A stretch of DNA of 48,347 nucleotides, taken from positions 1 through 48,347 of the IMG/VR virus record IMGVR_UViG_3300045918_000340. One strand, written 5' to 3'. Each line of letters starts with the position of its first letter. Positions within the stretch are counted from its first letter, which is position 1. This document shows, in pieces, positions 1,779-48,241 of the stretch. The stretch is from a virus. Position numbers and translations under genes: made by a program. The notes below the pieces were generated by a model. The model was not told the origin of the DNA. It ran no database searches and worked only from the letters and a program-made list of their open reading frames with translations.

Positions 1779-1808
1779 ACATTACTCCACGTTAACTATA
1801 GGCATCAC

Positions 1809-2486: not shown

Positions 2487-2494
2487 ATACGAGT

Positions 2495-2510
2495 GGACCT
2501 GGAAAGGTCC
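2495..2510 (+). terminator. short hairpin with GGAA loop
   Basis: GGACCT-GGAA-AGGTCC is a perfect 6-bp stem just after the PEP-CTERM gene. The following TTCAGGGTT is only weakly U-rich, so termination is possible but not certain. Confidence 0.4.
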
Positions 2511-2527
2511 TTCAGGGTTAGAATCAG

Positions 2528-2536
2528 GATAAATAC
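2528..2536 (+). promoter_or_regulatory. late promoter GATAAATAC
   Basis: Strong late box 57 bases before the vWA gene. Confidence 0.6.
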
Positions 2537-2592
2537 AAACGTCGCAACGGAGCGACACAACTTTATCACTTTCACCTTTGAAGGATTTCCAA

Positions 2593-4937: not shown

Positions 4938-5723
4938 ATGCACCGCCTTCTTGCAGCTCTGCTGCTTGCTGTCTCCTTCTTCTCGCAAGCTGCTAGCACC
5001 GTCCCGCTCCCAATGGGGCAGTGTTCATCTCAGCTCCTCTACGGCACGCCGACCTCCGTCAAGAAGTCTGCGCTGCCGATTTGCCGTAGCTCGTACTGGA
5101 CGCTGAACGATACCGCCACTGAGCTTCCACTCGCCGTCACCTACGTCCTCACGCCAGAGCACGCCCTTGGCTGCGAGAAGCGTGACAACGGCTTCGTCGC
5201 CGATGATGCCGTTCCGCCACCACGCGCCACGCCAAAGGATTACGCCAAGTCAGGCTACGACATCGGGCATATTGCCAATGCGGCTGACCTTGAGTATTCA
5301 ACGACGGCCACCACCGAGGCGAAGATACTAACGAACGCTGCGCCGCAATTGGCTGGCTTCAATCGTGGTATTTGGAAGAAGCTCGAGGATACTACGCGCG
5401 GCTGGGCAGTCGCTCGCAATCACCCACTTCAAATTACGGCGGGTGCCATTTACACGCCGAAGACCGATACGACCATCGGCGCCAATCATATTGGCGTGCC
5501 GCACGCCTTCTACAAGATAATCACCGACACCGTCACGGCTGAATCACAGGTATATCTGTTTCAGCACAAGCCGGCAAAGGGTGATTTGAATCAATTCATT
5601 TCCTCGCTCGCTGAAGTTCAGAAACAATCAGGGCTAGTTATTCCAATGCCATCAAAGGTCAAGTACACGAAGACTTGGCCTATCACGCAGAAGAGATCAG
5701 GCAAAACGTGCGCACTCAAATGA
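4938..5723 (+). CDS. secreted DNA/RNA non-specific endonuclease
   Basis: 261 residues with a signal peptide (cut near AAS, residue 20). The NUC/EndoG (Serratia nuclease) family is recognised from YDIGHIANAAD, matching the family's DRGH-xxPAxD block. H111 is the likely general base; the usual Arg of DRGH is Ile here. The block N142-RGIWKKLE150 supplies the metal-binding Asn and Glu. Family members cut single- and double-stranded DNA and RNA without sequence preference. Being exported, it would act in the periplasm or outside the cell, perhaps against competing phage DNA, extracellular DNA or DNA released at lysis. Those roles are inference. Confidence 0.88.
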   Translation: MHRLLAALLLAVSFFSQAASTVPLPMGQCSSQLLYGTPTSVKKSALPICRSSYWTLNDTATELPLAVTYVLTPEHALGCEKRDNGFVADDAVPPPRATPKDYAKSGYDIGHIANAADLEYSTTATTEAKILTNAAPQLAGFNRGIWKKLEDTTRGWAVARNHPLQITAGAIYTPKTDTTIGANHIGVPHAFYKIITDTVTAESQVYLFQHKPAKGDLNQFISSLAEVQKQSGLVIPMPSKVKYTKTWPITQKRSGKTCALK

Positions 5724-5863
5724 CGACCTTTCAGAAATTTCAATGCAGTCGATTTACTCGCTGGCTTTGGTTCTTCTGGCAGAATCAGCTCACAAAGGAA
5801 ATCTCAATTCGACCACGCTGGGCTGACGAATTGGCCTGGCCGTGGAAGCGACTCTACGTGTAA
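5720..5863 (+). CDS. small Trp/Arg-rich protein
   Basis: 47 residues whose ATG overlaps the nuclease stop (ATGA), suggesting translational coupling. It has six tryptophans and many Arg/Lys residues, so it is cationic and amphipathic, like membrane-active peptides. No family recognised. Its stop codon is part of the TGTAAC half-site of the next promoter. A real gene is likely but not certain. Confidence 0.5.
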   Translation: MTTFQKFQCSRFTRWLWFFWQNQLTKEISIRPRWADELAWPWKRLYV

Positions 5864-5918
5864 CGACTGAGGGTTCGTTACAAAGTTTCCCGCACGGGTT
5901 GGAAAAGATGGGTATAAT
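5859..5918 (+). promoter_or_regulatory. TATAAT promoter with TGTAAC/GTTACA operator
   Basis: TGTAAC at 5859-5864 and GTTACA at 5877-5882 form an inverted repeat with a 12-base spacer. TATAAT lies at 5913-5918, 30 bases after the right half-site and 32 bases before the helicase ATG. The same layout recurs upstream of several other genes. Confidence 0.7.
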
Positions 5919-5950
5919 GACTCCATCGCCATCCGATACAGGATTCCAAA

Positions 5951-7483
5951 ATGAGCTCCCTCCGCCTCGCCAAGAAGTTCGTCCCCAGCCCGCAGCAAGC
6001 GACGGTCTTCGACTGGATCACGAACGGCACCGGTAGCTGCGTTCTGGAAGCGGTCGCTGGCTCTGGCAAGACCACGACGCTGGTCAAGGCCCTGAACCTG
6101 ATGAGCGGCTCGATCTTCTTCGGTGCCTACAACAAGAAGATCGCCGTTGAAATCGAATCCCGCGCCCCGAGCAAGGACGGTCTGGTCATCAGCACCATGC
6201 ACGCCGCCGGCTTCAGCGCTTGGCGCAACGCGACTCGCCACCCGCAAGTGAATGGCGACAAGGTCCGCGACATCTTCCGTGACGCTTGTGTCCGCAACAT
6301 TCAGTACGCGACGTTCGAACGTCCTGTTCTGCAGCTCGTCTCGCTTGCCAAGCAAGCTGGCCTTGGTCTGACTGGTCTGCCAAGCTTCAAGAGCCGTGCC
6401 GCTTGGGAGCAGCTGGTCAAGCACTTCGATGTCGAGACGTTCGACGAGAACACCGATACCGACAACACCGAGATCATCATCAAGCTGGCGATCAAGACGC
6501 TCGAAGCCTCGATCGCTCAGAACATGAAGATCGTGGACTTCGACGACATGATCTACGCTCCGCTCTACCACGGTGCTCGTCTTCCGAAGTACGACTGGGT
6601 GCTGCTCGACGAAGCTCAAGACACCAACGCCACTCGTCGCGCTCTGGCTCTCGGCATGCTGGCTGAAGGTGGTCGTCTCATCGCCGTCGGTGACCGTCAC
6701 CAAGCGATCTACGGCTTCACTGGTGCCGACTCTGACGCGCTGGACCTGATCGCTACGGAGACCAACGCCAAGCAGCTTCCGCTGACCATCACGTATCGCT
6801 GCCCGAAGGCGGTGGTTGCCTACGCTCAACAGTGGGTCAACCACATTCAAGCTGCTGAGACGGCTCCCGAAGGTGTGGTCAGCACGCTGAACTCCACCGA
6901 GCTGGCTCTGTCCGCCAAGATTGGCGACGCCATCCTCTGCCGCTTCAACGCTCCGCTCGTCGAGTACGTCTACAAGTTCATCGCTGCTGGTACGCCGGCC
7001 ATGATCGAAGGCCGTGAAATCGGTAAGGGTCTGGTGACTCTGGCTCGTCGTTGGAAGGTCAAGAGCCTTGCCGCTCTGACGACCAAGCTCGAAGCCTGGC
7101 AAGAGCGTGAGACGGCCAAGGCCACCGCCAAGGAGAACGTCAGCAAGGCGACGGCCATCGAAGACCAGGCGAACTGCCTGAAGGTCATCATCGCTCGCGT
7201 CGAGCAGAAGGACCCGACCACGACCAACCCCGTGGCGCTGGTGGTTGCCGAGATCGAATCGATCTTCGCCGACAATCAGGACTCGACCAAGGTCGTGCTG
7301 CTCAGCTCCATTCACAAGAGCAAGGGAAGGGAATGGTCGAAGGTCTATTGGCTTCAAACTGGTCCCAACAAGCGTGCACGTCTGGACTGGCAACAGGCCC
7401 AAGAACGGAATTTGTGTTATGTGGCTGCGACCCGTGCGATGGACGAGCTGATCCTCGTTAACATTGAGAAGAAGATTTCCTGA
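5951..7483 (+). CDS. UvrD/PcrA-like superfamily 1A DNA helicase
   Basis: 510 residues. Motif I is EAVAGSGKTTT (Lys40), the Walker B box is LLDEAQD (Asp220-Glu221), and motif III is AVGDRHQAIYGFTGA. Motif IV-like TYRCP, then HKSKGREW and YVAATRAMDEL near the C-terminus, identify the UvrD family. It should unwind DNA 3' to 5' using ATP during replication, recombination or repair. At 510 residues it is shorter than cellular UvrD (about 700), as in many phage relatives. It is transcribed from the TATAAT/GTTACA promoter, which suggests early or middle expression. The 3' end overlaps a convergent homing endonuclease by 26 bases, and the last codons change in style. Confidence 0.93.
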   Translation: MSSLRLAKKFVPSPQQATVFDWITNGTGSCVLEAVAGSGKTTTLVKALNLMSGSIFFGAYNKKIAVEIESRAPSKDGLVISTMHAAGFSAWRNATRHPQVNGDKVRDIFRDACVRNIQYATFERPVLQLVSLAKQAGLGLTGLPSFKSRAAWEQLVKHFDVETFDENTDTDNTEIIIKLAIKTLEASIAQNMKIVDFDDMIYAPLYHGARLPKYDWVLLDEAQDTNATRRALALGMLAEGGRLIAVGDRHQAIYGFTGADSDALDLIATETNAKQLPLTITYRCPKAVVAYAQQWVNHIQAAETAPEGVVSTLNSTELALSAKIGDAILCRFNAPLVEYVYKFIAAGTPAMIEGREIGKGLVTLARRWKVKSLAALTTKLEAWQERETAKATAKENVSKATAIEDQANCLKVIIARVEQKDPTTTNPVALVVAEIESIFADNQDSTKVVLLSSIHKSKGREWSKVYWLQTGPNKRARLDWQQAQERNLCYVAATRAMDELILVNIEKKIS

Positions 7484-8036
7484 GCCTACCGCGACGAGCC
7501 ATCTCGTCGCGATTTGCCAAGGCGAATGCCCTTTGTTTTTCAGAGGCATTCGCCTTGAACGCTTCAGAACGAACATGCCCTTGGGCATTCTTTTGCCCTC
7601 TCAACTTCAAGTTCGGCACGCCTATCTTGGCTTCGCTGATCGCTTTGTTCTTCGCAGCCTTCGCCTCTGGTGTAAGGTTAGCGTGATACGATTTCATTCT
7701 AGCGCTGTGTGCTGCTATTTGTTCTGGCGTTTTTGTATAACCACTTAGACCGTCACCGCCATCTGTAAGGTTATAGCCATTTGGTGCTTTAGTTTTGTAT
7801 TGAGCAATCAACTGAACTTCTAAAGCACAGAGGTCCTTGCGAGAGAAAGAACTCGCAATCTGTTCAACGGTAAAGGCATCAACACCGTATTTGCGGATCG
7901 CATTATAGAGAGCGATGTTATCATCTGCCTTCTTTGCCGTGTTCAGATGGGCTTTGAACCGACGGTTCAAAGAACCCTTCGTGATCCCGATGTATTGTTT
8001 GCCGTTCATGGTGTTAGTGATCAAGTAAGCAATCAT
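7458..8036 (-). CDS. GIY-YIG homing endonuclease
   Basis: 192 residues. The GIY-YIG core is MIAYLITNTMNGKQYIGIT, followed by the family Arg (SLNRRFKAH) and the Glu/Asn region (EVQLIAQY, GYNLTDGGDG). Basic helical DNA-binding repeats follow (SEAKIGVPN, GHVRSEAFK). A minus-facing late box lies 12 bases upstream. It is convergent with the helicase gene and overlaps its 3' end by 26 bases, exactly as the first endonuclease does with the vWA gene. Likely a selfish element that cuts the helicase region in genomes lacking it. Confidence 0.9.
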   Translation of the reverse strand: MIAYLITNTMNGKQYIGITKGSLNRRFKAHLNTAKKADDNIALYNAIRKYGVDAFTVEQIASSFSRKDLCALEVQLIAQYKTKAPNGYNLTDGGDGLSGYTKTPEQIAAHSARMKSYHANLTPEAKAAKNKAISEAKIGVPNLKLRGQKNAQGHVRSEAFKANASEKQRAFALANRDEMARRGRLRKSSSQC

Positions 8037-8047
8037 AGATCCTCCTC

Positions 8048-8056
8048 GTCTATTTA
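8048..8056 (-). promoter_or_regulatory. minus-strand late promoter GATAAATAG
   Basis: Faces the homing endonuclease at 7458-8036. Identical nine bases to the box at 4366-4374. Confidence 0.7.
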
Positions 8057-8071
8057 TCAGGAAAAGAAGGT

Positions 8072-8134
8072 ATTGTAACTGTCATTTCTTGGTTACACTT
8101 CATCGCTCACAGAACCCAAGATCTGTGGTAGAAT
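8072..8134 (+). promoter_or_regulatory. TAGAAT promoter with TGTAAC/GTTACA operator
   Basis: TGTAAC 8072-8077 and GTTACA 8090-8095 are 12 bases apart. The -10 TAGAAT is at 8129-8134, 33 bases after the right half-site and 26 bases before the ATG at 8161. Confidence 0.65.
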
Positions 8135-8160
8135 AGTGTCACTGAACAAAGGAGCCAACC

Positions 8161-8403
8161 ATGGCCGCCGTCACCAAGCTCGGTCTCGAAACTCACGTCG
8201 AGATCATCATCTACGATCCGTTGCCAACCGTCGTCAAGAAGCGCTTCGACAACTGCACCCGCCCCGCCATCATCGCCGCCATCGAGCGTGAGTATGGCGA
8301 TGACCTGATCGGCATCGCCATCTACGATGTCAGCAAGGTGCAGGTCGATGGCATCGTCTATCGCTCGGACCCCATCAACAAGACTAGCTGGAAGCGGAGC
8401 TGA
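8161..8403 (+). CDS. hypothetical protein
   Basis: 80 residues, first gene of a small operon behind the operator-type promoter. Mixed alpha/beta pattern (HVEIIIYDPLP, IIAAIEREYGDDLIGIAIYDV). The next gene starts 2 bases after the stop. Not recognised. Confidence 0.7.
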   Translation: MAAVTKLGLETHVEIIIYDPLPTVVKKRFDNCTRPAIIAAIEREYGDDLIGIAIYDVSKVQVDGIVYRSDPINKTSWKRS

Positions 8404-8405
8404 GC

Positions 8406-8678
8406 ATGGCTCAACTCAACGCACATCAACTTGGCGAGCTCGACGCTCGCGACTTTCTTGGCGACGACACGTGGCGCCGGTGGAAGCAGCTCTACGACGA
8501 AGCCATGGCCTATCGCAAGACCCTCAAGGGCAAGCCGACCGAGGAGCAGCGCGCTCAGCTCGAGGCGAACGCCGAGTGGGTTGCCTTCTGCGACCACGTG
8601 CTGTGGCACTCGGCTCGCCTTCGTGATCGGTGCTGCTGCCGGTCGTGCACTCAGAAACGTGACAGGATCACATCATGA
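8406..8678 (+). CDS. hypothetical helical protein
   Basis: 90 residues, mostly helical with many charged residues. The C-terminus carries a Cys-rich run (RCCCRSC) that could bind metal. It overlaps the next gene by ATGA. Not recognised. Confidence 0.65.
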   Translation: MAQLNAHQLGELDARDFLGDDTWRRWKQLYDEAMAYRKTLKGKPTEEQRAQLEANAEWVAFCDHVLWHSARLRDRCCCRSCTQKRDRITS

Positions 8679-8938
8679 ACTTCGAATCAGTTAGCGACCT
8701 CACCATGAACCGCATGGTCAGCGTGCCAGACGCCAAGCAGAACATCGTTCGTCTGGACGACGGCGAGCTGCTGCTGGTCTCCATTCAGCTGCCGAATGGG
8801 CAAGAGCGCCTCATCAAGATCTCCAGCATGGGTTGGATGACGCTGGTCGAGGCGCCGCGCGAGAAGACCGAGCTGCTGTTCCGCATGGGACCACCGTCCT
8901 TCGCCGTCAACGAAGTCTGCTTCGATCCTCGAGGATAA
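8675..8938 (+). CDS. hypothetical beta-rich protein
   Basis: 87 residues, overlapping the previous stop. Short strands (NIVRLDDGELLLVSIQL) suggest a small beta fold. The last codons run into a late box. Not recognised. Confidence 0.68.
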   Translation: MNFESVSDLTMNRMVSVPDAKQNIVRLDDGELLLVSIQLPNGQERLIKISSMGWMTLVEAPREKTELLFRMGPPSFAVNEVCFDPRG

Positions 8939-8942
8939 ATAG
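8934..8942 (+). promoter_or_regulatory. late promoter GATAAATAG
   Basis: Overlaps the stop of the preceding gene and lies 34 bases before the 15-codon leader frame. Confidence 0.65.
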
Positions 8943-8975
8943 ATCTCCCACCAACCGCACCTTTAGGAGGATGCT

Positions 8976-9023
8976 ATGACACCGCTAAACGCAATTCCAA
9001 TGGAACACCTCGTCGCTCTGTAA
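8976..9023 (+). CDS. 15-codon leader peptide or decayed gene start
   Basis: MTPLNAIPMEHLVAL behind a perfect AGGAGG site 5 bases upstream. The frame of the next gene (9050) stays open upstream across this stretch and reads like protein but has no start codon. Either this is a translated leader that feeds ribosomes onward, or one base change has separated the original start from its gene. Confidence 0.4.
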   Translation: MTPLNAIPMEHLVAL

Positions 9024-9049
9024 ACGGCATCTCGCCGAAGTTCCGGCGA

Positions 9050-9388
9050 ATGTCGGAGCTGTATCGTCACTTCGGAACGCCCATGGGGCGAACCTTAATC
9101 TTCGATGACGACGCTTTGCTTTCGTTGTATAATCACGAAAGCTATGGAACACCCCTCAGCGAGCGCAATGGGTTCGCCGTTGGCAAGCAGTACCTGAACC
9201 TGACGGTAACCGCTTGGCGTGAGATGATCCTCGAGGGGACGCTCGCTAAGTTCGAGCTGTACGAGGACCCTGCCTACCCGCACTGGTGGTTGGACGGTGT
9301 GCTGAACAATCTCTACAAGGACATGACCTATGAAGATCTCCTCAAGACGTCCCGCGTCGGTGGAAGCCATCGTATCCGACATTCGTGA
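9050..9388 (+). CDS. hypothetical protein, possibly 5'-truncated
   Basis: 112 residues from ATG 9050, which lacks a good ribosome site. Upstream codons in the same frame continue open for about 26 codons. The middle is Trp/Tyr-rich (AYPHWWLDGVLNNLY). The last 59 bases overlap the next gene in another frame. Not recognised. Confidence 0.6.
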   Translation: MSELYRHFGTPMGRTLIFDDDALLSLYNHESYGTPLSERNGFAVGKQYLNLTVTAWREMILEGTLAKFELYEDPAYPHWWLDGVLNNLYKDMTYEDLLKTSRVGGSHRIRHS

Positions 9389-9623
9389 CAAGTGGAGCGC
9401 CGAGGACCTGGCCTTCGTAAAGTCTGGCGCTTTCTCGATGGGCGCCGTTGGGCGTCGCATTCGCAACGAGTACGGGCTGTGGAATCCGTCGTGTCCGCTG
9501 ACCGCACGCTGGCACGCTGACCCTGCCAACCGCTTCATTCGTGACGGCATCGACTTCTCCGTCGACCATCCGGACAGCGTGGCCGAGCGCATCGAGAGCC
9601 TGCTTCGGGAGCAGCTGCAATGA
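9330..9623 (+). CDS. DUF6794-like hypothetical protein
   Basis: 97 residues. The core GAVGRRIRNEYGLWN, followed by a DFSVDHPDSVAE block, resembles a small family of unknown function (DUF6794), in which a GxxIRNxxGLW motif is followed by an HPDD motif. A GTG at 9360 is an alternative start that would remove most of the overlap with the preceding gene. Confidence 0.7.
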   Translation: MKISSRRPASVEAIVSDIRDKWSAEDLAFVKSGAFSMGAVGRRIRNEYGLWNPSCPLTARWHADPANRFIRDGIDFSVDHPDSVAERIESLLREQLQ

Positions 9624-10192
9624 AGATCCTCTTTCTCGATATCGACGGCGTGCTGAACAGCTCACGCTCCGTGCTGGCCCGCAGCGGACAGCACCTGATG
9701 AACATTGGTGCTTACAATGCAGTGCGCATGCTCTGCGCTGGCGAGCTGCCGTACGGCATCAAGCAATCGCTGGAGACGGTCGACCCAGTCGCCGTTGACC
9801 TCGTCAATCGCTTGCTCTCGAAGGATGAGGACCTGCGCATCGTGCTGTCCAGCTCACATCGCTCGTACTTCTCCTCTGTCGCCTATCTGACGCAGTTCGG
9901 CTCTGGCGAGCATCTCGCCGCGCTTCAGACCTACCTCAAGGCGCTTGGGCTGATGGCTGATCGCCTCATCGGCTGCACGCCGCAGCTCCACACCTACCGT
10001 GGCACCGAGTGTCGCAAGTGGTTGGAAGAGCATCGTGAGGTGCGATACGCGTGCGCGCTCGACGATGGCGCCGACTTTCACAAGGGCGACTGCTACCACG
10101 TGCTCGTCAATCCAGCCATTGGCTTCTCAGCGGACGACTACTACCAAGTATGTCGCCACCTCTTCATCGACGAAAGTCCCATTCTGATCTAA
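9620..10192 (+). CDS. HAD-family hydrolase
   Basis: 190 residues. Motif I is FLDIDGVLN, with nucleophile D7 and acid D9. Motif II is IVLSSSH and the late acidic motif is ALDDGADF. This matches the HAD group found alone or fused in phage RNA-repair proteins, where it acts as a phosphatase on nucleotides or RNA ends; the substrate here is unknown. It overlaps the previous gene by 4 bases and is followed by a GGAGG site for the next. Confidence 0.85.
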   Translation: MKILFLDIDGVLNSSRSVLARSGQHLMNIGAYNAVRMLCAGELPYGIKQSLETVDPVAVDLVNRLLSKDEDLRIVLSSSHRSYFSSVAYLTQFGSGEHLAALQTYLKALGLMADRLIGCTPQLHTYRGTECRKWLEEHREVRYACALDDGADFHKGDCYHVLVNPAIGFSADDYYQVCRHLFIDESPILI

Positions 10193-10201
10193 GGAGGCAT
10201 C

Positions 10202-10384
10202 ATGCCTGAATTCAAAGCTGGCGACGTCGTTCGCCTCAAGTCCGGTGGTCCGCGCATGACCTTGTACTTCATCTCTGGTGCGAACGTGACCTGCAAGTAC
10301 TTCAACAAGGTCACTGGGCTGATCGTGCAGGAGACGTTCTTCATGCACATGCTCGAGGTCGCCTTGCCGGGCGAAGGCGAATGA
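10202..10384 (+). CDS. DUF2158 (YodC-like) small protein
   Basis: 60 residues beginning FKAGDVVRLKSGGPRMT, the signature of the DUF2158/YodC family. Function unknown; the fold is small and beta-rich. Overlaps the next gene by ATGA. Confidence 0.82.
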   Translation: MPEFKAGDVVRLKSGGPRMTLYFISGANVTCKYFNKVTGLIVQETFFMHMLEVALPGEGE

Positions 10385-10680
10385 GAAAGCCTACCTACGA
10401 AGAGCTCGAGGGTGGACTCCGCTCGTTCGCCTTTCGCGTGAACTTCCATCGCACGATGTCCATGGACAATCAAGCGGTGCTGAACGACCTCGCTGACCTG
10501 GACGCCTACGTTCAAGCGCACAGCAGCCACAACGGCGAGAACCCGCAGAAGCTCATCGACGCTCGCGTCAACGAAGCCTTCTGGCTGCGCATCGCCAAGA
10601 TGACACCGCCGGCCAGGGTGCCGACCGAGCCGAAGGTTGCCAAGGAGCGCAAGCCGCGCAAGAAGAAGGACGCCGTATGA
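10381..10680 (+). CDS. hypothetical protein with basic tail
   Basis: 99 residues. Helical body, then a C-terminal tail of Lys/Arg/Pro (KERKPRKKKDAV), so nucleic-acid contact is plausible. Overlaps neighbours at both ends by 4 bases. Not recognised. Confidence 0.68.
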   Translation: MRKPTYEELEGGLRSFAFRVNFHRTMSMDNQAVLNDLADLDAYVQAHSSHNGENPQKLIDARVNEAFWLRIAKMTPPARVPTEPKVAKERKPRKKKDAV

Positions 10681-10817
10681 ACAGCATTGAACGAATGCTC
10701 GAGCACATCATCGAGATGCAGCGCTGGGCAGCTCAGGACCCCGTGAAGAACGATGCGCTGCTCAATCACCTGCTGCGCGTTCGTGACGAGCTCGAGCGTC
10801 GGCTGGCGAAATCATGA
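10677..10817 (+). CDS. small helical protein
   Basis: 46 residues (starts MNSIERMLEHIIEMQRW), two short amphipathic helices. Start and stop overlap neighbours as ATGA, which supports translation. Not recognised. Confidence 0.62.
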   Translation: MNSIERMLEHIIEMQRWAAQDPVKNDALLNHLLRVRDELERRLAKS

Positions 10818-10978
10818 GCGTGAAGAACGTTGAGCTGCCCGCTCAGTACTTCGACAAGGCGCGCCTCGAAGCCGATGCGCTGCGCGCCGAGTGGTGGGCG
10901 TACATCGAGAAGAATCAGAAGACTCTGACGTCCATTCCGACGTTTCAAGAATGGTACGCGCAGCGCTCGCCGTCTTGA
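10814..10978 (+). CDS. small hypothetical protein
   Basis: 54 residues, charged and helical with a Trp pair (AEWWAYIEK). It starts in an ATGA overlap; its last 28 bases overlap the signal peptide of the D,D-peptidase in another frame. Not recognised. Confidence 0.6.
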   Translation: MSVKNVELPAQYFDKARLEADALRAEWWAYIEKNQKTLTSIPTFQEWYAQRSPS

Positions 10979-29801: not shown

Positions 29802-32369
29802 ATGAAGCGCTCGCGAATCTCTCTCGCAGTCGGCCTTCTGACCCTCCTGACAGCCTGCGGTGGTGGTAGCGTCGAGTCCGACGTCCCCTCAGCACAGACC
29901 GCCAGTGGCCAGCTTCCCACAGCCGAAGTCCACCCAACCTTTCACATGTCGGCAGTCCTTCCGGACGAGCCGAGCGATGTCGATGCCAGCGGTGGCAGCG
30001 TCTCGGCCTTCATGCCACCGGCCTCCAAGCCCGTGCCGGTCGAGCTGCAAGGCCTCTCCACCAAGCAGCTCACTCTGCAAGCTTTGACCGACGCCAGGGG
30101 CAAGACTCACGCGCTTGCCGCTGGCTCGGTCAAGCCGATGGTGTCGGTGTCCTACACCCCAGCTCAGATTCGCGCAGCCTACGGTCTGCCGGCGGTCGCA
30201 GCCTCCACACCCGTTCAGCTCGGCGCTGGCCAGACGATCTACATTCTGGATGCGTACGACAACCCGACCGCGCTGGCTGACCTCAACGCCTTCTCGACGA
30301 AGTTCGGCCTCCCGCTCTGCACCAACGTCGCAGTCACGGCGGCCAACGCCTTCCCCCTCGCTGCCCCGTCCAGTGGCTGCGACTTCTCGGTCATCTACAC
30401 CGACTCCACCGGCAACATCGTCCCGACGGCGCCGACCTACGACTCTGGTTGGGCTGGTGAGATCGCTCTCGACGTTCAATGGGCTCACGCCATCGCTCCG
30501 CTCGCCCGCATCGTGCTGGTCGAAGCGCAGAACTCCTACATCGACCGCCTCTACTACGCCACGAAGACCATCAACAAGATGGGCCCGGGCCCGGTGTCCA
30601 TGTCGTTCGGTGCTCCGGAATATCCTGGCTACACCGACACCACTCGCGACGCCTTCCTCGCGCCTGGCTACACCTACCTCGCAGCGACTGGCGACAATGG
30701 CTACCAAGCCATGTGGCCCGCCGTGATGGGTGAAGTGGTTGCCGTCGGCGGCACCTCGCTGAACTGGTCTGGCACTGGTACTCGCACCGAGACCGCTTGG
30801 TCTGGCGCTGGTGGTGCTGTCAGTCAGTACGTGCCGCTCCCGTCGTATCAAGTCAATCTCAAGCTCGCCGATGGCTCAACGCCGACGATGCGCGCAGTGG
30901 CTGACGTCTCGATGAACGCTGACCCGTCCACTGGCCAGTACGTCGCGATGACGTACAACGGTACGGTCAACTGGTTCACGTTCGGTGGGACCAGCATGTC
31001 GACACCGATGTGGGCAGGCTTCGTCGCTCTTGGCAACGCTCAACGTGCTGCCGCTAGCCAACCTGTCATCGGTCGCATTCACAGCGCGATCTACGCCGCT
31101 GGTCAAGCTGCAACGACCTACGCGCAAGTCTTCCTCGACGTGACGACTGGCGCCAACGGAACCTGCAAGTACTGCGCCGCCACGACGAAGTACGACATCC
31201 CGACCGGCTTCGGCACTCCCAACGGTTTCGAGATGGTGGCGAACCTCGCCAGGTACGCCACGTCGACGCCCACTCCGACCCCGACGCCCACACCGCCGGC
31301 TCCGACCCCGCCGACTTCGATCTCGGTTCCTGGTGGCAACATCCCTGGCCGCGCTGGTGCTCCGCTCAGCTACACCCTTGGCATTCAAGCCCTGCCCAGT
31401 GGCTCGTACACCTACGCAGTGTCTGGTGTGTCTGGTGTCACGGTCAGCACGATGGGTGTCCTCACCTGGGCGAAGCCTGTCCTTGGCACGTGGAACGCTA
31501 CGGTGACGGTCAAGTCGACGACTGGCCAATCAGCCAGCGGTGTCTACAAGTTCGTCATCGGTGCTGCCAACAAGGCTCCGCTGGTGCAGAACATCGCGCT
31601 CTCACTGACGACCGCTCAGACTGTCTCGACCACGCCGATGTCCTCAGACCCCGATGGTGATGCGCTGACCTTCAAGCTCGGCTCAGTCGCTCCGGCCGGC
31701 CTGGCGCTGACAACCGCTGGTGGCCTCACCTTCGCGCCTACCACCAAGGGTGTCTACACGATCCGTGTCATCGCCACCGATACGTATGGTGCCAGCTCGA
31801 CCAGCACCGCAACGTTCACGGTCACGACCGCACCGTCCACCCCGGTCATCGAGATCGCCACGGACTTCATCGAAGTGCCAGCCGGTCTGCCCGTCAGCCT
31901 GCAAGCGGTGATCACGAACGCTGATGGTCTGAGGCCTGTGACTCGGCTGATCAACGCTCCGGCCGGAATGACGCTCAGCTCCACTGGTCTCATCACTTGG
32001 CCGAAGGCTGTGGTTGGAACCTACACGGTGACGCTCGAAGCCAAGGACCCGAGTGGCCTGACCAGTACGCACTCCTTCACCGTGCAGGCCAACGCTCCCA
32101 CACCGCCGACCCTCATCGAGCTGACCCTCGCCGTCAAGCCGAACCAAGTCTTCGCGATGCAGATCCCGGCCTCGACGACGAACGGTACCTCACTGAGCTA
32201 TGTCCTCTACTCTGTCAACCCGACGCCCACTCCGGTAGGTCTGACGGTTAGCTCGACTGGCATGCTTCGCTGGACCAAGACCGTGAAGGGAACCTACTTC
32301 GTCACGATCATGGTGACAGATGCCCTCGGTCTGAAGTCCTCAGGCGTCATCTCTTTGCAAGTGATGTAA
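29802..32369 (+). CDS. sedolisin (peptidase S53) lipoprotein with Ig-like repeats
   Basis: 855 residues, the largest gene here. Lipobox LLTAC (Cys19) follows a signal peptide. Residues about 110-490 are an S53 protease: the Glu-x3-Asp pair E220/D224 (GWAGEIALDVQW), the oxyanion Asp in ATGDNG (D298), and nucleophile Ser398 in FGGTSMSTP. The substrate strand EVVAVGGTSL also fits. A Pro/Thr linker (PTPTPTPTPPAPTPP) follows, then three to four cadherin/Ig-like repeats of about 85 residues, each ending in a GTxxVTVxAxD-type strand. S53 enzymes are acid-active proteases, usually secreted by bacteria or fungi. On a phage it could act at the host surface. Base composition matches its neighbours. Confidence 0.9.
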   Translation: MKRSRISLAVGLLTLLTACGGGSVESDVPSAQTASGQLPTAEVHPTFHMSAVLPDEPSDVDASGGSVSAFMPPASKPVPVELQGLSTKQLTLQALTDARGKTHALAAGSVKPMVSVSYTPAQIRAAYGLPAVAASTPVQLGAGQTIYILDAYDNPTALADLNAFSTKFGLPLCTNVAVTAANAFPLAAPSSGCDFSVIYTDSTGNIVPTAPTYDSGWAGEIALDVQWAHAIAPLARIVLVEAQNSYIDRLYYATKTINKMGPGPVSMSFGAPEYPGYTDTTRDAFLAPGYTYLAATGDNGYQAMWPAVMGEVVAVGGTSLNWSGTGTRTETAWSGAGGAVSQYVPLPSYQVNLKLADGSTPTMRAVADVSMNADPSTGQYVAMTYNGTVNWFTFGGTSMSTPMWAGFVALGNAQRAAASQPVIGRIHSAIYAAGQAATTYAQVFLDVTTGANGTCKYCAATTKYDIPTGFGTPNGFEMVANLARYATSTPTPTPTPTPPAPTPPTSISVPGGNIPGRAGAPLSYTLGIQALPSGSYTYAVSGVSGVTVSTMGVLTWAKPVLGTWNATVTVKSTTGQSASGVYKFVIGAANKAPLVQNIALSLTTAQTVSTTPMSSDPDGDALTFKLGSVAPAGLALTTAGGLTFAPTTKGVYTIRVIATDTYGASSTSTATFTVTTAPSTPVIEIATDFIEVPAGLPVSLQAVITNADGLRPVTRLINAPAGMTLSSTGLITWPKAVVGTYTVTLEAKDPSGLTSTHSFTVQANAPTPPTLIELTLAVKPNQVFAMQIPASTTNGTSLSYVLYSVNPTPTPVGLTVSSTGMLRWTKTVKGTYFVTIMVTDALGLKSSGVISLQVM

Positions 32370-40428: not shown

Positions 40429-40477
40429 GCATCGCAGTTCAGCACACATCTTTTTGTGTTACAATGAACTGCGATGC
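40429..40477 (+). promoter_or_regulatory. 13-bp hairpin enclosing the start of a homing endonuclease gene
   Basis: GCATCGCAGTTCA (40429-40441) pairs perfectly with TGAACTGCGATGC (40465-40477), with an inner ACACA/TGTGT stem. The start codon at 40474 lies in the right arm. Read-through RNA from the tRNAs would hide the start. Confidence 0.75.
40460..40465 (+). promoter_or_regulatory. -10 box TACAAT inside the hairpin loop
   Basis: The TGTGTTACAAT context gives a transcript beginning near 40472, lacking the left arm of the hairpin and nearly leaderless. Confidence 0.5.
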
Positions 40478-41109
40478 AAAAGCCACCTAAGACTTACCAC
40501 TACCTTTATCGAACAACCTGTCTTGTGACAGGCAAGTTCTATGTTGGTATGCACTCAACAGACGACCTCAACGACGGTTATCTTGGGAGCGGAAAGATTT
40601 TAGGTCGCTCTCGCAAAAAGCATGGTGACGAAAAACATGTGAAAGAAATTCTTGAACACTGTGCCTCTCGTGAAGCGCTGAAACTTCGTGAGAAGGAAAT
40701 AGTCTCAGCAGAGATGCTCGCCAACCCGTTGAACATCAATTTGAAGATTGGCGGCGAAGGCGGTTGGGATCATATACCGCAGGAGGTAGTTCTATCGAAC
40801 CTCTCAAAAAGAAATGTTGGTTGGGCGACCTACAACAGATCAGAAAAGGGAAGGCTCAAAGCCTCTGAAAACATTCGCAAGATAAATGTTGTTGGTCGAA
40901 AGTCTTCTTATGGTTTTCGTGGCAAACAACATACCGATGAAACTAAACAAATTCAAAGCCAGCACCATCAAGGTGCTGGCAACTCTCAATACGGAACTTG
41001 TTGGGTAACCAAAGACAACAAGTCATCCAAAATCAAAAAGACTGACCTTGACGAATACCTCGCTAATGGTTTCTCGAAAGGCAGAGTAATTTCTAAAATG
41101 GTGATGTAG
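40474..41109 (+). CDS. GIY-YIG homing endonuclease in the tRNA array
   Basis: 211 residues. GIY-YIG core YHYLYRTTCLVTGKFYVGMHS, conserved Arg in LGRSRKKHG, and the Glu/Gly-rich INLKIGGEGGWDH block. The C-terminal QYGTCWVTK followed by KKTDLDEYLANGFSKGR is a DNA-binding module shared with the second array endonuclease. AT-richer than the surrounding genome. It lies between tRNA-Gln and a distorted tRNA gene and its stop TAG is formed by bases 8-10 of that tRNA. Start codon is held in a hairpin. Confidence 0.92.
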   Translation: MQKPPKTYHYLYRTTCLVTGKFYVGMHSTDDLNDGYLGSGKILGRSRKKHGDEKHVKEILEHCASREALKLREKEIVSAEMLANPLNINLKIGGEGGWDHIPQEVVLSNLSKRNVGWATYNRSEKGRLKASENIRKINVVGRKSSYGFRGKQHTDETKQIQSQHHQGAGNSQYGTCWVTKDNKSSKIKKTDLDEYLANGFSKGRVISKMVM

Positions 41110-42302: not shown

Positions 42303-42947
42303 ATGAACAAACATCATCTAGTTTATCGCACGACGAACCTTCTGAACGGAAGGTATTACATCGGCATCCATTCAACGTCGAACATCGACGATGGGTATCT
42401 TGGTAGCGGTCGTAGGATCAAGGCGGAAATCAAGAAGTACGGTCAAGAGAATTTCAAGCGTGAGATCCTTGAGTCATACCCAACAAGGCAAGAAGTCTTG
42501 AAACGCGAAGCCGAATTGGTCACTGAAGAACTTCGTCAAGATTCGCTCTGTCTGAATCTTAAGAATGGCGGCGAAGGCGGTTGGGAACATCTGAATGACA
42601 ACTCTGAGGTCCAACGCGCAAAAGGACGTAAAGGAAATGCCAGCATCAAGATCTTGGCAAATGATCCTATTTGGGCCGCATCAAGAAGCGCAGCAATCAG
42701 CAATGGTCTTCGCGGAAAGTCTGCTGGGTGGAGTGAACAAGCAACAATGGCTTCGCACACCGATGAAGTAAATCAAAAGCGAAGTCGCACAATGAAAGAC
42801 TTGGCAAGGCAATCAGGCCAAGCAAATTCCCAGTTCGGAACCTGTTGGGTGACCAACGGGTTTCCAATAAAGATCAAGAAACAAGATCTCGATTCGTATC
42901 TGACAAATGGATATGTTCGAGGAAGAACAAAACAATGGTGCACGTAG
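42303..42947 (+). CDS. second GIY-YIG homing endonuclease in the tRNA array
   Basis: 214 residues. Core HHLVYRTTNLLNGRYYIGIHS, catalytic Arg region (GSGRRIKAEIKK), LNLKNGGEGGWEH, and the C-terminal QFGTCWVTN followed by KKQDLDSYLTNGYVRGR. It is a clear paralogue of the endonuclease at 40474. It lies between two tRNA-His genes; its stop TAG is bases 8-10 of the second. AGATGA/TCATCT around the start forms a small hairpin holding the ATG. AT-rich compared with neighbours. Confidence 0.92.
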   Translation: MNKHHLVYRTTNLLNGRYYIGIHSTSNIDDGYLGSGRRIKAEIKKYGQENFKREILESYPTRQEVLKREAELVTEELRQDSLCLNLKNGGEGGWEHLNDNSEVQRAKGRKGNASIKILANDPIWAASRSAAISNGLRGKSAGWSEQATMASHTDEVNQKRSRTMKDLARQSGQANSQFGTCWVTNGFPIKIKKQDLDSYLTNGYVRGRTKQWCT

Positions 42948-45444: not shown

Positions 45445-45452
45445 TTGGATGA

Positions 45453-45472
45453 GGGTGGAGCTAGCTCCACCC
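45453..45472 (+). terminator. 20-base perfect palindrome between fibre genes
   Basis: GGGTGGAGCTAGCTCCACCC can fold as an 8-bp hairpin. No T run follows, so it may cap mRNA or attenuate rather than terminate. Confidence 0.5.
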
Positions 45473-45489
45473 ACCTTCAAGGACGCATC

Positions 45490-46323
45490 ATGGCAGTACT
45501 TGGACCACTAGAGCGCGAGTTGATTGAACTCAACTCTGCGATTTCAAACCTCCGCAGCCGCGCTGAAGGGGTGGTCTTTCACTCACAAACTGGAACGGAC
45601 GCTCAAGTGCAAACAATCATCCCATCAGTCTCTGGCGGTGCCGGCAACGACATCATCAACGTTGAGGTGAATGAATCATGCGTTTGTCCACCTGGTCCTC
45701 CGGGTCCAGAGGGGCCACCAGGCCCGGTTGGTCCGCAGGGTCCGACAGGTCCTCAAGGCCCATTTGGTCCTCAAGGCCCATTTGGTCCTCAAGGCTCGCA
45801 GGGTTCACAAGGCTCTGTTGGTCCAGCCGGACCTCAAGGCGATCCAGGGCCAGTGGGTTCACCAGGACCCGTTGGCCCACAAGGCGATCCAGGCCAGACA
45901 GGCCCGATTGGTCCTCCAGGTCCTATTGGCCCAGTGGGTTCGACAGGTCCTTCGGGGCCTCAAGGTCCGATTGGTCCCGCCGGTCCGCAAGGTCCAATAG
46001 GCCCCGTTGGTCCGCAAGGGCCACCAGGCAAGTGTGAGTGTGACCGAGCCACGCAGCTCATCTCGGCAGACTACGAAGCACAGATCACAGACTTTTATAT
46101 CGGGGTCTCAGCGAAGGGTCCTGTAAAGATCCTCCTACCACAAAAAGCGCCAGATGGCACGTGGCTCATAGTGAAGCTTGAGATGGGAGCGCCGATCGGA
46201 ACACGAAAGGTCACGCTGGATGGGAATGGGGCAACAATCGATGATGCCGCCACTATCACCATGACCAAAGCCTACGAGATCGTTTGGTTGATCAGCCGTG
46301 GCGGGTCCTGGTTCGTGGTGTAA
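45490..46323 (+). CDS. collagen-like fibre protein
   Basis: 277 residues. A head of about 65 residues is followed by roughly 130 residues of uninterrupted Gly-x-y triplets ([19 protein letters not shown] style), bounded by cysteines (CVCPPG and GKCECD). A globular C-terminal domain of about 75 residues ends [12 protein letters not shown]. Collagen triplets form a triple helix, and the cysteines at both ends could lock the trimer. Phage examples are tail or head fibres or decoration. The DNA repeats are expected from the protein. Confidence 0.9.
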
Positions 46324-46591: not shown

Positions 46592-46840
46592 GTGTTATCC
46601 GTTCAAGACCTGCTTCGTAAAGCCAACTGGCTACTAAGCGCTCGCGAAGAGTGGGAGCCGCCAGTCGGCTTCTTCATGCGCCCGTGCGACACCATCGCAC
46701 GTGAGCTGCTTGACCTGAGCGATGACAAGACGCAGGCGATAGGCCGACTGGATGACTACATCAATATCACTAGAGCAGCCTTAGACGATGACGACCTGAA
46801 TCGCCTAGAGCGAGCCAGGAAAATCATCAACGATAAATAG
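46592..46840 (+). CDS. hypothetical helical acidic protein
   Basis: 82 residues from GTG 46592. Helical with many Asp/Arg residues. Last codons overlap the next late box. Not recognised. Confidence 0.65.
   Translation: MLSVQDLLRKANWLLSAREEWEPPVGFFMRPCDTIARELLDLSDDKTQAIGRLDDYINITRAALDDDDLNRLERARKIINDK
46832..46840 (+). promoter_or_regulatory. late promoter GATAAATAG
   Basis: Overlaps the preceding stop and sits 3 bases before tRNA-Arg(CCG). Confidence 0.62.
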
Positions 46841-46843
46841 AGC

Positions 46844-46914
46844 ATCGCCACCAATGGATTGGCATCAGGCCTCCGAAGCCAGATTGGCGGGTTCGAATCC
46901 CGCTGGCGGTTCCA
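46844..46914 (+). tRNA. tRNA-Arg (anticodon CCG), short D-arm
   Basis: Acceptor ATCGCCA/TGGCGGT, T, CCA encoded. Loop ctCCGaa. D-arm CCAA-TGGA-TTGG is identical to that in tRNA-Arg(ACG) at 41649. The convergent gene ends on the next base. Confidence 0.86.
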
Positions 46915-47424
46915 TCACTTGACCGTGTACCCCACGAGGTACTTCGCCGGAACCTTTGCGTTCACGCGCAGCTCTGCGAGCTGATAGAACTGCTGGTCAT
47001 TGCTATCGAACTTGTCGTATTCATCCTTGTTGAGCAGCCGCTTCAGATGAAGTGGGTCGTTGCCACGCAGGTCAGGGTCACGGTGCGCCGTCACCCAAGC
47101 GCGCGGTAGGTCGAACACGAGCGTGATGCGCTCGTTCTCATGAATGGTTTGCGCCTTCGCACCAGCCTTGCGAAACTCTGCCTCACCACCCATTGATGCA
47201 AACGCTCTTGCCGTGTATGGTTCAAGCGCGAAGGAGATCATGCCGGTGCCAGCGTCGAGGCGATCAAGGCCAGTCTTGGCGATCGACTCAAGATGCTTGA
47301 GCTGGGTGCCGTGATAGACGCGCAGCGGATTCTTGTCCTCCCACCAGCCGATGGTTGGATTCTTTTCCCACGGCAGCTTCGGCACCTCTCGTGCTTCGGC
47401 GATGAATTGTTTGAAGGTCAGCAT
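46915..47424 (-). CDS. ADP-ribosyltransferase-like protein with capsid-targeting N-terminus
   Basis: 169 residues. N-terminus MLTFKQFIAEAREVPK closely resembles the T4 capsid-targeting peptide (MKTYQEFIAEA type), with IAE-A as the prohead protease site. The body has RVYHGTQLKHLESIAKTGL (a YHGT loop) and SFALEPYTARAFA, as in the ADP-ribosyltransferase/Tpt1 fold, where His and Tyr hold NAD. A late Glu (QFYQLAELRV) could be catalytic. By analogy with T4 Alt, it may be injected with DNA and modify host RNA polymerase or other proteins. Transcribed from its own minus-facing late box. Confidence 0.8.
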   Translation of the reverse strand: MLTFKQFIAEAREVPKLPWEKNPTIGWWEDKNPLRVYHGTQLKHLESIAKTGLDRLDAGTGMISFALEPYTARAFASMGGEAEFRKAGAKAQTIHENERITLVFDLPRAWVTAHRDPDLRGNDPLHLKRLLNKDEYDKFDSNDQQFYQLAELRVNAKVPAKYLVGYTVK

Positions 47425-47445
47425 TGGAAATCCTGTGTTGGTCTT

Positions 47446-47453
47446 CTATTTAG
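47446..47453 (-). promoter_or_regulatory. minus-strand late-promoter-like box CTAAATAG
   Basis: 22 bases upstream of the ADP-ribosyltransferase-like gene; overlaps a plus-facing box by one base. Confidence 0.6.
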
Positions 47454-47461
47454 ATAAATAC
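47453..47461 (+). promoter_or_regulatory. late promoter GATAAATAC
   Basis: Six bases before tRNA-Trp, back to back with the minus-facing box. Confidence 0.65.
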
Positions 47462-47466
47462 AGCAC

Positions 47467-47542
47467 GGGTCAGTAGCTCAATTGGCAGAGTTCTGGTCTC
47501 CAAAACCAGCGGTTCGGGGTTCGAGTCCCTGCTGGCCCGCCA
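47467..47542 (+). tRNA. tRNA-Trp (anticodon CCA), copy 2
   Basis: Acceptor GGGTCAG/CTGGCCC, G, CCA. CTGGT-ctCCAaa-ACCAG. Confidence 0.93.
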
Positions 47543-47614: not shown

Positions 47615-48241
47615 ATGCAAAGACGCCGTGTCTACATCATCGCTGCCTTACTGATTGCATTCTCTGCTCTTGGGCTAGGCGTTCTACTTTACAAGTCATC
47701 AGGTTCATCCTCGCCGTCGGCTCCAGCAGGCGGCAGCGGTTCATCAGGCGCCGTCGGGCAACCCGTGCTGATGGTTGCCACAGTGGCAGCCGCCGCACCT
47801 CGGGTTGAGGCTCGTTCTGAGCGCCCAACCACACGAGCACGCCCGCTCTCAACTCGAACCAGCGAACCAGCACCAACCGTTCAGGCGGCTGCGCAAGAGC
47901 CAGCGCTGCCTGACGAACCCACGGGCGCCGGCCCAATGTCAATCGACGAGCAGCCTACGTTTGCTGGTTCAGGTGGTGGTTGGGGTTCAGGCACGCCGAC
48001 CAGCGCACCGGTTGAGGGTGGTGGCGGTGCGCCGATGGCTAGCGCTCTCTCCTTTCAGACGTTCGGTGGTGGTGGCAGCGTCATCAGCTCGCCATCACCT
48101 GCGCCGACCATTGACACGCGCAACGGCATTCCACGCACATCGGTTCAGGTTCCGACCTCGCCGGTTGATGAGCCGAATCTGGTGTGGTTGATGCTCGCAG
48201 GTCTTGGAGCGCTGTCCTTCAAAGCTCGTCGGAACAAGTGA
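47615..48241 (+). CDS. exported Pro/Ser/Gly-rich protein with PEP-CTERM-like tail
   Basis: 208 residues. N-terminal signal anchor (RRRVYIIAALLIAFSALGLG), then a disordered Pro/Ser/Ala/Gly-rich stretch, and a C-terminal tail with VDEPN, a hydrophobic helix (LVWLMLAGLGALSF) and KARRNK. The tail matches the PEP-CTERM plan except that the first Pro of PEP is Asp. The tail LAGLGALSFKARR is close to LAGLGVLVFKGRR of the protein at 1809, suggesting shared processing or descent. Confidence 0.75.
   Translation: MQRRRVYIIAALLIAFSALGLGVLLYKSSGSSSPSAPAGGSGSSGAVGQPVLMVATVAAAAPRVEARSERPTTRARPLSTRTSEPAPTVQAAAQEPALPDEPTGAGPMSIDEQPTFAGSGGGWGSGTPTSAPVEGGGGAPMASALSFQTFGGGGSVISSPSPAPTIDTRNGIPRTSVQVPTSPVDEPNLVWLMLAGLGALSFKARRNK

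What the first reader, a model, noticed from the sequence alone, without database searches (positions are those of the whole stretch)
46915..47424. Alt-like injected ADP-ribosyltransferase candidate
It joins a near-perfect T4-style capsid-targeting peptide to an ADP-ribosyltransferase-like YHGT fold, with its own late promoter on the minus strand. Only about 170 residues long, it is much smaller than T4 Alt (about 680), so it would be a minimal injected effector.
Basis: partly seen in the sequence, partly recalled or inferred. Interest (0 to 1): 0.72.

Follow-up and report, generated by a model that had tools for sequence, protein, structure and literature searches.

The report
Predicted head-packaged phage ADP-ribosyltransferase
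A giant-phage relative of T4 carries a small enzyme-like protein that folds like an ADP-ribosyltransferase and whose first ten residues look like the T4 tag that loads proteins into the virus head, so it is probably injected into the bacterium with the DNA to modify a host molecule; it is not a member of the T4 Alt family.

Summary
The ORF at 46915-47424(-) is a real 169-aa gene: 45 Vibrio phages and ten further loci carry homologues (38-55% identity). AlphaFold2 (pLDDT 85, pTM 0.80) gives an ADP-ribosyltransferase (ART) fold; the best solved matches are the NAD-binding lobe of Tpt1/KptA (Z 9.5), then TreX, PARP and DarT. Residues 1-10, MLTFKQFIAE, match T4 IPIII (MKTYQEFIAE) at all four positions shown in T4 to matter (4, 7, 8, 10). 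Background for that pattern: 0 of about 8,900 starts in two relatives' genomes outside one tagged-gene cluster. Seven of eight non-Vibrio homologues keep it. A related 350-kb phage puts the same leader on seven proteins of other families. T4-type prohead protease and capsid genes occur in the large related genomes. Two other phages hold the gene inside T4-like head operons. Late-promoter-like sites precede seven of eight non-Vibrio copies and none of three Vibrio ones. 'Alt-like' is wrong as kinship: the signature is His...Ser...Glu-x-Arg, not Arg-Ser-Glu-x-Glu, and sequence does not connect it to Alt, ModA or ModB. Activity, target and virion presence are untested. I rate it a new, unnamed family of a known kind: the virion-borne ART.

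The parts
46915..47424 (-). 169-aa CDS (stop codon included)
   Evidence: homologues
47395..47424 (-). codons 1-10, MLTFKQFIAE: predicted capsid-targeting propeptide; predicted gp21-type cut (I-x-E|A) after codon 10
   Evidence: match to T4 IPII/IPIII; pattern background; critical positions 4, 7, 8, 10 from PMC9026906; disordered in the model (residues 1-11 pLDDT <50)
47341..47376 (-). codons 17-28 (LPWEKNPTIGWW): N-terminal segment conserved in the family, GW invariant
   Evidence: alignment A4
46924..47325 (-). codons 34-167: ADP-ribosyltransferase-fold domain
47305..47316 (-). motif I, Y37-H38-G39-T40 (candidate NAD-binding His38)
   Evidence: invariant in 9/9; aligned with the Tpt1/KptA 'HGT'
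47233..47235 (-). motif II position, Ser64 (invariant), aligned with the second His of KptA
46966..46974 (-). motif III, E151-L-R153 (candidate catalytic Glu151 at the start of a strand)
   Evidence: invariant E and R in 9/9; strand 151-154
47431..47434 (-). AGGA ribosome-binding-site-like sequence
   Evidence: sequence
47447..47454 (-). TCTAAATA, T4-late-promoter-like, one mismatch, 22 nt before the ATG
47453..47460 (+). GATAAATA late-promoter-like site of the opposite strand (towards tRNA-Trp), overlapping the previous one by two bases
47467..47542 (+). tRNA-Trp (cca), flanking gene on the other strand
46841..46912 (+). degenerate tRNA-like element (good T arm and acceptor stem), preceded by GATAAATA at 46832-46839; lies directly against the 3' end of the ART gene
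   Evidence: sequence; missed by ARAGORN and below the Rfam tRNA threshold

Best explanation
A compact, single-domain ADP-ribosyltransferase that is made late, drawn into the prohead core by an IPIII-type capsid-targeting propeptide, cut after Glu10 by the phage's gp21-type prohead protease, and kept in the mature head. It is then ejected with the DNA, where the 159-residue enzyme transfers ADP-ribose from NAD+ to a host molecule at the start of the next infection. Supported by computation here: the gene, the ART fold, the leader and its conservation, the leader shared with proteins of other families, the presence of gp21 and gp23 in related genomes, and head-operon context in other phages. 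Inferred: cleavage, packaging, injection, catalytic activity (candidate residues His38, Ser64, Glu151) and the target, which is unknown; a protein is somewhat likelier than RNA or DNA.
For: Fold: AlphaFold2 pLDDT 85, pTM 0.80. Foldseek's best PDB hits are Tpt1/KptA (E 8.5e-5); VIA-align Z 9.5, 90 residues at 2.6-2.7 A, then TreX, PARP13, DarT and diphtheria toxin. The BFVD model of the Kuja homologue, made independently, fits at TM 0.86/0.91, rmsd 1.5 A. Conserved YHGT, S64, GGE, R99, GN, E151-x-R153 in 9 of 9. Leader: 7/11 identical to T4 IPIII; kept in 7 of 8 non-Vibrio homologues as MITFKQYLRE, MLRLKDFITE, MKRFTKYVAE, MKSFSQFLAE, MLTFKQFLLE, MLRFSQFITE besides the window's own; background 0 of about 8,900 starts. 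The related 350-kb phage (many window ORFs 40-70% identical) has seven more proteins beginning M[IK]TFK[QKE][FY][LI]xE, of other families. gp21 protease (PF03420) in all five large related genomes tested and gp23 in four of four. Head-operon context: L023, ART between the Ad2-type (gp13-like) and Hc2-type (gp14-like) genes; L024-L026, ART between the tail-sheath stabilizer (gp15-like) and small terminase (gp16-like), then large terminase. Late-promoter-like site within 25 nt of the start in 7 of 8 non-Vibrio copies, expected 0.004-0.06 each; 0 of 3 in Vibrio phages, which lack the leader. Precedent: IPIII CTS and its key positions, gp21 motif L/I-x-E (PMC9026906); ARTs proposed to be widely head-packaged in myoviruses (PMC9503650).
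Against: No protein or activity data. The window is a 48-kb fragment without gp21 or gp23, so the cognate protease is inferred from relatives. The 45 Vibrio phages carry the domain without any leader (sequences read for four), so packaging is not essential to the family. The gene's own promoter-like site has a mismatch at a well-kept position, and several homologues have the site only 4-5 nt before the ATG, too close for a usual leader mRNA. No Pfam, NCBIfam or PHROG model reaches its cut-off for this protein. The motif II residue is Ser, not the Tyr or His of the nearest structural classes, so activity cannot be taken for granted.
Confidence: 0.66

Rival explanations
1. The ART is made late but acts in the cell that makes it, for example against a superinfecting phage or a late host defence, and the N-terminal peptide is an accidental or relict likeness to the T4 tag.
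For: The Vibrio homologues have no leader and sit away from head genes; L007 has only a degenerate leader, MRHFELREARE.
Against: Leader kept at the four critical positions in 7 of 8 homologues and shared by seven proteins of other families in a related genome; background rate below 1 in 8,000 starts.
Confidence: 0.15
2. It acts on RNA or tRNA like Tpt1/KptA (RNA 2'-phosphotransferase or tRNA repair), in keeping with the 25 tRNA genes, tRNA nucleotidyltransferase and RNA ligase of the window.
For: Best structural and weak sequence matches are to Tpt1/KptA; tRNA-rich surroundings; CCA-adding enzyme and RNA ligase families in the window.
Against: Only the C-terminal NAD lobe of KptA is matched (from its residue 86 on); the N-terminal RNA lobe is absent. 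The second motif His is Ser64. A head-targeting leader is not expected on a housekeeping RNA-repair enzyme. Homologues elsewhere lie in head operons, not beside tRNAs.
Confidence: 0.07
3. The fold is an ART but catalytically dead or NAD-binding only, packaged as a sensor or decoy that ties up NAD+ or ADP-ribose signals of host defence.
For: Motif II Tyr/His replaced by Ser; no classical triad could be confirmed with these tools.
Against: His38, Ser64, Glu151 and Arg153 are invariant in all nine diverse members, which is unusual for a dead enzyme; Ser at motif II is normal in the R-S-E class (named in PMC9503650).
Confidence: 0.1
4. A true member of the Alt/VIP2 family (R-S-E ART), reduced to its catalytic core, ADP-ribosylating host RNA polymerase alpha.
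For: Same presumed delivery route; weak likeness in register to T4 ModB around motifs I-II (hhalign probability 0.5%).
Against: His instead of Arg at motif I, E-x-R instead of E-x-E at motif III; hhalign probability 0.1% with Alt; leader of IPIII type, not Alt type.
Confidence: 0.02

Closest known systems
T4 Alt (RNA polymerase ADP-ribosylase, Alt/VIP2 family, R-S-E clade)
   Same: ART domain; predicted to be carried in the head, processed by the prohead protease and injected.
   Different: 169 aa against 682; His/Glu-x-Arg signature instead of Arg/Glu-x-Glu; no detectable sequence kinship; IPIII-type instead of Alt-type propeptide.
T4 internal proteins IPII and IPIII (capsid-targeting sequence)
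   Same: Ten-residue leader with the same critical positions and the I-x-E cut site.
   Different: The cargo is an ART domain, not a small basic internal protein.
Tpt1/KptA RNA 2'-phosphotransferases
   Same: Closest solved structures for the ART domain; YHGT...G motif.
   Different: N-terminal RNA-binding lobe missing; second motif His replaced by Ser; Glu present at motif III; below family cut-offs.
H-Y-[EDQ] clade ARTs and other compact ARTs (PARP, diphtheria toxin, TreX, DarT)
   Same: Comparable fold (Z 6-7); motif I His and motif III Glu as in the H-Y-E class.
   Different: Ser instead of Tyr at motif II; no family model reached.
Hypothetical proteins of Vibrio Ackermannviridae phages (e.g. 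Kuja_0200; VPHK469_0041)
   Same: Homologous domain, about 50% identity over 153 residues, same predicted fold.
   Different: No capsid-targeting leader and no late-promoter-like site; annotated 'hypothetical protein'.
Head-packaged phage ARTs surveyed by Iyer et al. 2022 (PMC9503650)
   Same: General idea: ARTs of myoviruses carried in the head and encoded near head genes.
   Different: They inferred packaging from MuF/portal fusions, head-gene vicinity and T4-like alt context. An ART tagged with a T4 IP-type leader is not described in the sections read; their supplementary family lists were not checked.

Membership tests
ART superfamily | ART fold with NAD-binding split beta-sheet | tested here: met
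   pLDDT 85; matches to Tpt1/KptA, TreX, PARP, DarT, diphtheria toxin; independent BFVD model of Kuja homologue
ART superfamily | conserved active-site residues in three motifs | tested here: met
   H38, S64, E151 invariant in 9/9; geometry of the site not measured
ART superfamily | NAD-dependent ADP-ribosyl transfer | not testable with these tools
   needs purified protein
T4 Alt (Alt/VIP2, R-S-E clade) | motif I arginine | tested here: not met
   His38 in 9/9
T4 Alt (Alt/VIP2, R-S-E clade) | motif III Glu-x-Glu | tested here: not met
   E151-x-R153 in 9/9; Alt has E-M-E at 574-576 by the script's count
T4 Alt (Alt/VIP2, R-S-E clade) | detectable profile similarity to Alt | tested here: not met
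   hhalign probability 0.1%, 16 columns; single T4 sequence on one side, so sensitivity is limited
T4 Alt (Alt/VIP2, R-S-E clade) | carried in the virion | not testable with these tools
   needs virion mass spectrometry
T4 internal-protein-type (CTS) cargo | leader with aromatic/hydrophobic residue 4, aromatic 7, I/L 8, E 10 and gp21 motif L/I-x-E | tested here: met
   MLTFKQFIAE (rule from PMC9026906)
T4 internal-protein-type (CTS) cargo | leader is a module shared by proteins of different families in one genome | tested here: met
   met in the related phage G001: seven further leader-bearing proteins; the window's own genome is only a fragment
T4 internal-protein-type (CTS) cargo | gp21-type prohead protease in the same genome | tested here: inconclusive
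   none in the 48-kb fragment; present in all five large related genomes searched
Tpt1/KptA | N-terminal RNA lobe plus C-terminal NAD lobe | tested here: not met
   only residues 86-180 of KptA are matched; the protein has 33 residues before the ART domain
Tpt1/KptA | family score cut-off (PF01885 26 bits; NF002013 231 bits) | tested here: not met
   16.3 and 15.4 bits
H-Y-[EDQ] clade | motif I His and motif III Glu | tested here: met
   H38, E151; assignment of E151 by its position at the start of a strand is inference
H-Y-[EDQ] clade | motif II Tyr | tested here: not met
   Ser64 aligns with the KptA second His and is invariant; alignment from a weak match, so moderately sure

The most novel reading that the evidence does not exclude
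A previously undescribed family of miniature virion-borne ARTs with a mixed His-Ser-Glu active site. T4-like and jumbo phages would load them through a portable ten-residue head-entry tag, and the gene would move between head-operon, tRNA-cluster and other sites, sometimes gaining or losing the tag. The enzyme would strike a host target other than RNA polymerase alpha at the first moment of infection.
Probability: 0.45. Interest if true: 0.68.

Novelty: new variant of a known kind. Interest (0 to 1): 0.52.

Why it matters
If true, T4 Alt is not the only way a T4-type phage brings a ready-made ART into the cell: a second ART family, with a different signature, uses the internal-protein tag. The tag can be searched for by sequence, so the injected cargo of T4-like and jumbo phages becomes listable: one relative alone yields eight tagged proteins, this ART included. 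A 159-residue ART with an unusual active-site signature would be a simple enzyme to assay and a candidate first-strike effector or counter-defence.

Tried and rejected
Single-protein scans: the search for related loci with the window protein alone found nothing; alignment queries and the L017 sequence were needed. phmmer against the PDB with the window protein found nothing; the family profile gave weak Tpt1/KptA hits. No plasmid homologue. PADLOC: no match for the window protein, only a weak DarT hit for L007 (E 0.046). Alt, ModA and ModB by hhalign: no significant kinship. Pectobacterium phage hit (E 0.7) dismissed as chance. A partner antitoxin or immunity gene: none apparent beside the window gene, which lies alone between two tRNA-type elements. 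Alt-type ARTs are not in the displayed pdb_via list, but VIA-align only re-scores Foldseek's candidates, so this is not used as evidence. A literature search for the Tpt1 catalytic residues found nothing, so the KptA argument rests on the missing lobe and the motif II residue.

Full report
What was checked. The ORF at 46915-47424 on the minus strand is real and complete. Its open frame begins seven codons before the ATG and has no other start codon there, and AGGA stands six bases upstream of the ATG. tblastn finds 45 Vibrio phage records at about 50% identity over 153 residues (a 46th hit, in a Pectobacterium phage at E 0.7, I take as chance). Scans of viral contigs and one of genome contigs add ten other loci: L006, L007, L017, L021-L026 and the IMG copy of Kuja, L008. 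The Vibrio relatives are annotated as hypothetical proteins.

Where the window comes from. It is a 48-kb viral fragment, 57% G+C, with 25 tRNA genes, a tRNA nucleotidyltransferase and an RNA ligase. Many of its ORFs are 40-70% identical to, and largely in the same order as, those of a 349,660-bp viral contig, G001, the source of L006. T4-late-promoter-like octamers are strongly over-represented in the window (21 against 3.0 expected, reached by none of 100 shuffles), most of them as GATAAATA. G001 carries gp21-type protease and gp23. The window therefore most likely belongs to a jumbo phage of the T4 kind.

The ART half. No family model reaches its cut-off for the protein; the hints are PTS_2-RNA (16.3 bits) and, for other members, PARP and ART-PolyVal. 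A nine-member alignment shows invariant YHGT (37-40), G52, S64, P69, T71, A72, GGE (79-81), R99, GN (121-122), Y147, E151-x-R153 and G165. AlphaFold2 on that alignment gives pLDDT 85 and pTM 0.80, with residues 1-11 of low confidence. Foldseek against the PDB lists Tpt1/KptA first, at E from 8.5e-5. VIA-align gives Z 9.5 over 90 residues at 2.6-2.7 A to Tpt1 residues 86-177, then TreX, PARP13, DarT, diphtheria toxin and others at Z 6-7. The independent BFVD model of the Kuja homologue fits at 1.5 A. The ART fold is thus secure as a prediction. The protein matches only the NAD lobe of Tpt1/KptA and lacks the RNA lobe, so it is not an RNA 2'-phosphotransferase by anatomy. In a weak HMMER alignment Ser64 sits on the second His of KptA, which suggests a His-Ser-Glu site; this is inference.

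The targeting half. T4 IPII and IPIII begin MKTYQEFIAEA and IPI begins MKTFKEF. In IPIII residues 4 and 7 matter most for targeting and residues 8 and 10 for cutting, and gp21 cuts after L/I-x-E (PMC9026906). MLTFKQFIAE|A agrees at all four. A pattern built on these positions matches once among 1,099 possible starts in the window, at this gene, and never among 7,098 starts in the 320-kb body of G001 or 1,797 in G002 (sums mine). In the two end regions of G001 it matches seven times: MITFKQYLRE, MITFKQFLSE, MITFKQFLGE, MITFKKFLSE, MKTFKQFILE, MITFKEFLLE, MITFKQFLDE. These proteins belong to other families (phrog_12810, phrog_11975/15932, one with a zeta-toxin-like P-loop kinase). The ART homologue of the same genome begins MITFKQYLRE. 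The leader is therefore a shared module in that phage. Among the ART homologues it is kept in the window protein, L006, L017, L021, L022, L023 and L024-L026 (which carry one identical protein), is degenerate in L007, and is absent from the Vibrio phages read.

Promoters and context. Within 60 nt upstream, a NNTAAATA site lies 4-22 nt from the start in the window, L006, L007, L017, L021, L022 and L023, against 0.004-0.06 expected each. L024 and three Vibrio phages have none. L024 is explained by context: in L024-L026 the gene sits inside a T4-like head operon, after head-closure Hc2 (gp14-like) and tail-sheath-stabilizer (gp15-like) genes and before small and large terminase. In L023 it sits between Ad2-type (gp13-like) and Hc2-type (gp14-like) genes, next to a homing endonuclease. 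In the window it lies between tRNA-Trp and a degenerate tRNA-like element, both on the other strand with their own GATAAATA sites.

Is it Alt? By mode of action, plausibly alike; by family, no. T4 Alt has Glu-Met-Glu at motif III and belongs to the R-S-E clade (PMC9503650). This family has His at motif I and Glu-x-Arg. hhalign against Alt, ModA and ModB gives 0.1, 0.3 and 0.5%. Its leader is that of the internal proteins, not Alt's MELITELFDEDTT.

How it most likely works. Late synthesis, entry into the prohead core by the tag, cutting after Glu10, retention in the head, ejection with DNA, NAD-dependent modification of a host target. The first three steps rest on sequence, conservation and T4 precedent; ejection, activity and target are inference. 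Iyer et al. already argued that many myovirus ARTs are head-packaged, so the kind is known. What is new is a compact ART family carrying the internal-protein tag, with a signature that fits neither Alt, Tpt1 nor the classical H-Y-E class exactly. Their supplementary lists could not be checked for this family.

Overall. Observation confirmed; interpretation right on fold, tag and likely delivery, wrong on Alt kinship. Confidence in 'packaged, injected, active ART' is 0.66; in the ART fold about 0.95; in the leader being a functional head-targeting sequence about 0.85.

Noticed in passing
L029 (G001) 5222-10870 and L046 (G001) 1790-3303: A cluster of seven proteins sharing the leader M[IK]TFK[QKE][FY][LI]xE, from phrog_12810, phrog_11975/15932 and a zeta-toxin-like P-loop kinase: predicted further head-packaged cargo of this jumbo phage. 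The two groups lie at the two ends of the contig, so they may be one cluster if the genome is circular.
   Followed up: partly
window, whole: GATAAATA/TATAAATA octamers are strongly enriched (21 against 3) and stand right before tRNA genes, e.g. 1446 (tRNA-Ser), 12178 (tRNA-Arg), 47453 (tRNA-Trp), as if tRNAs are transcribed from late promoters.
   Followed up: partly
window 46841-46912 (+): Degenerate tRNA-like element with a good T arm and acceptor stem, possible anticodon CCG, preceded by GATAAATA; missed by ARAGORN and below the Rfam tRNA threshold.
   Followed up: partly
window 47615-48241 (+): 208-aa protein with an N-terminal hydrophobic stretch, low-complexity middle and a C-terminus with a sub-threshold PEP-CTERM-like match (13.1 bits, E 0.11), odd for a phage.
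   Followed up: no
window 29802-32369 (+): 855-aa protein with a weak subtilase-like region (below cut-off) and Ig-like repeats; possible virion surface protease.
   Followed up: no
window 45445-46323 (+): Collagen-like protein related to phage tail fibres.
   Followed up: no
window 40474-41109 and 42303-42947 (+): Two related ORFs inside the tRNA array that hit the same place in G002 and in L004, where the L004 match overlaps a gene annotated with a nuclease-associated modular domain; likely homing endonucleases.
   Followed up: no
L004 5950-6378 (Vibrio phage 1.244.A): Copy of the ART gene that has lost the YHGT motif region at its N-terminus, probably inactive.
   Followed up: partly
L017 (contig PAVT01000078.1, filed under a Verrucomicrobia MAG): The contig carries a leader-bearing ART homologue with TATAAATA upstream and looks like a phage contig binned with a bacterium.
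   Followed up: no
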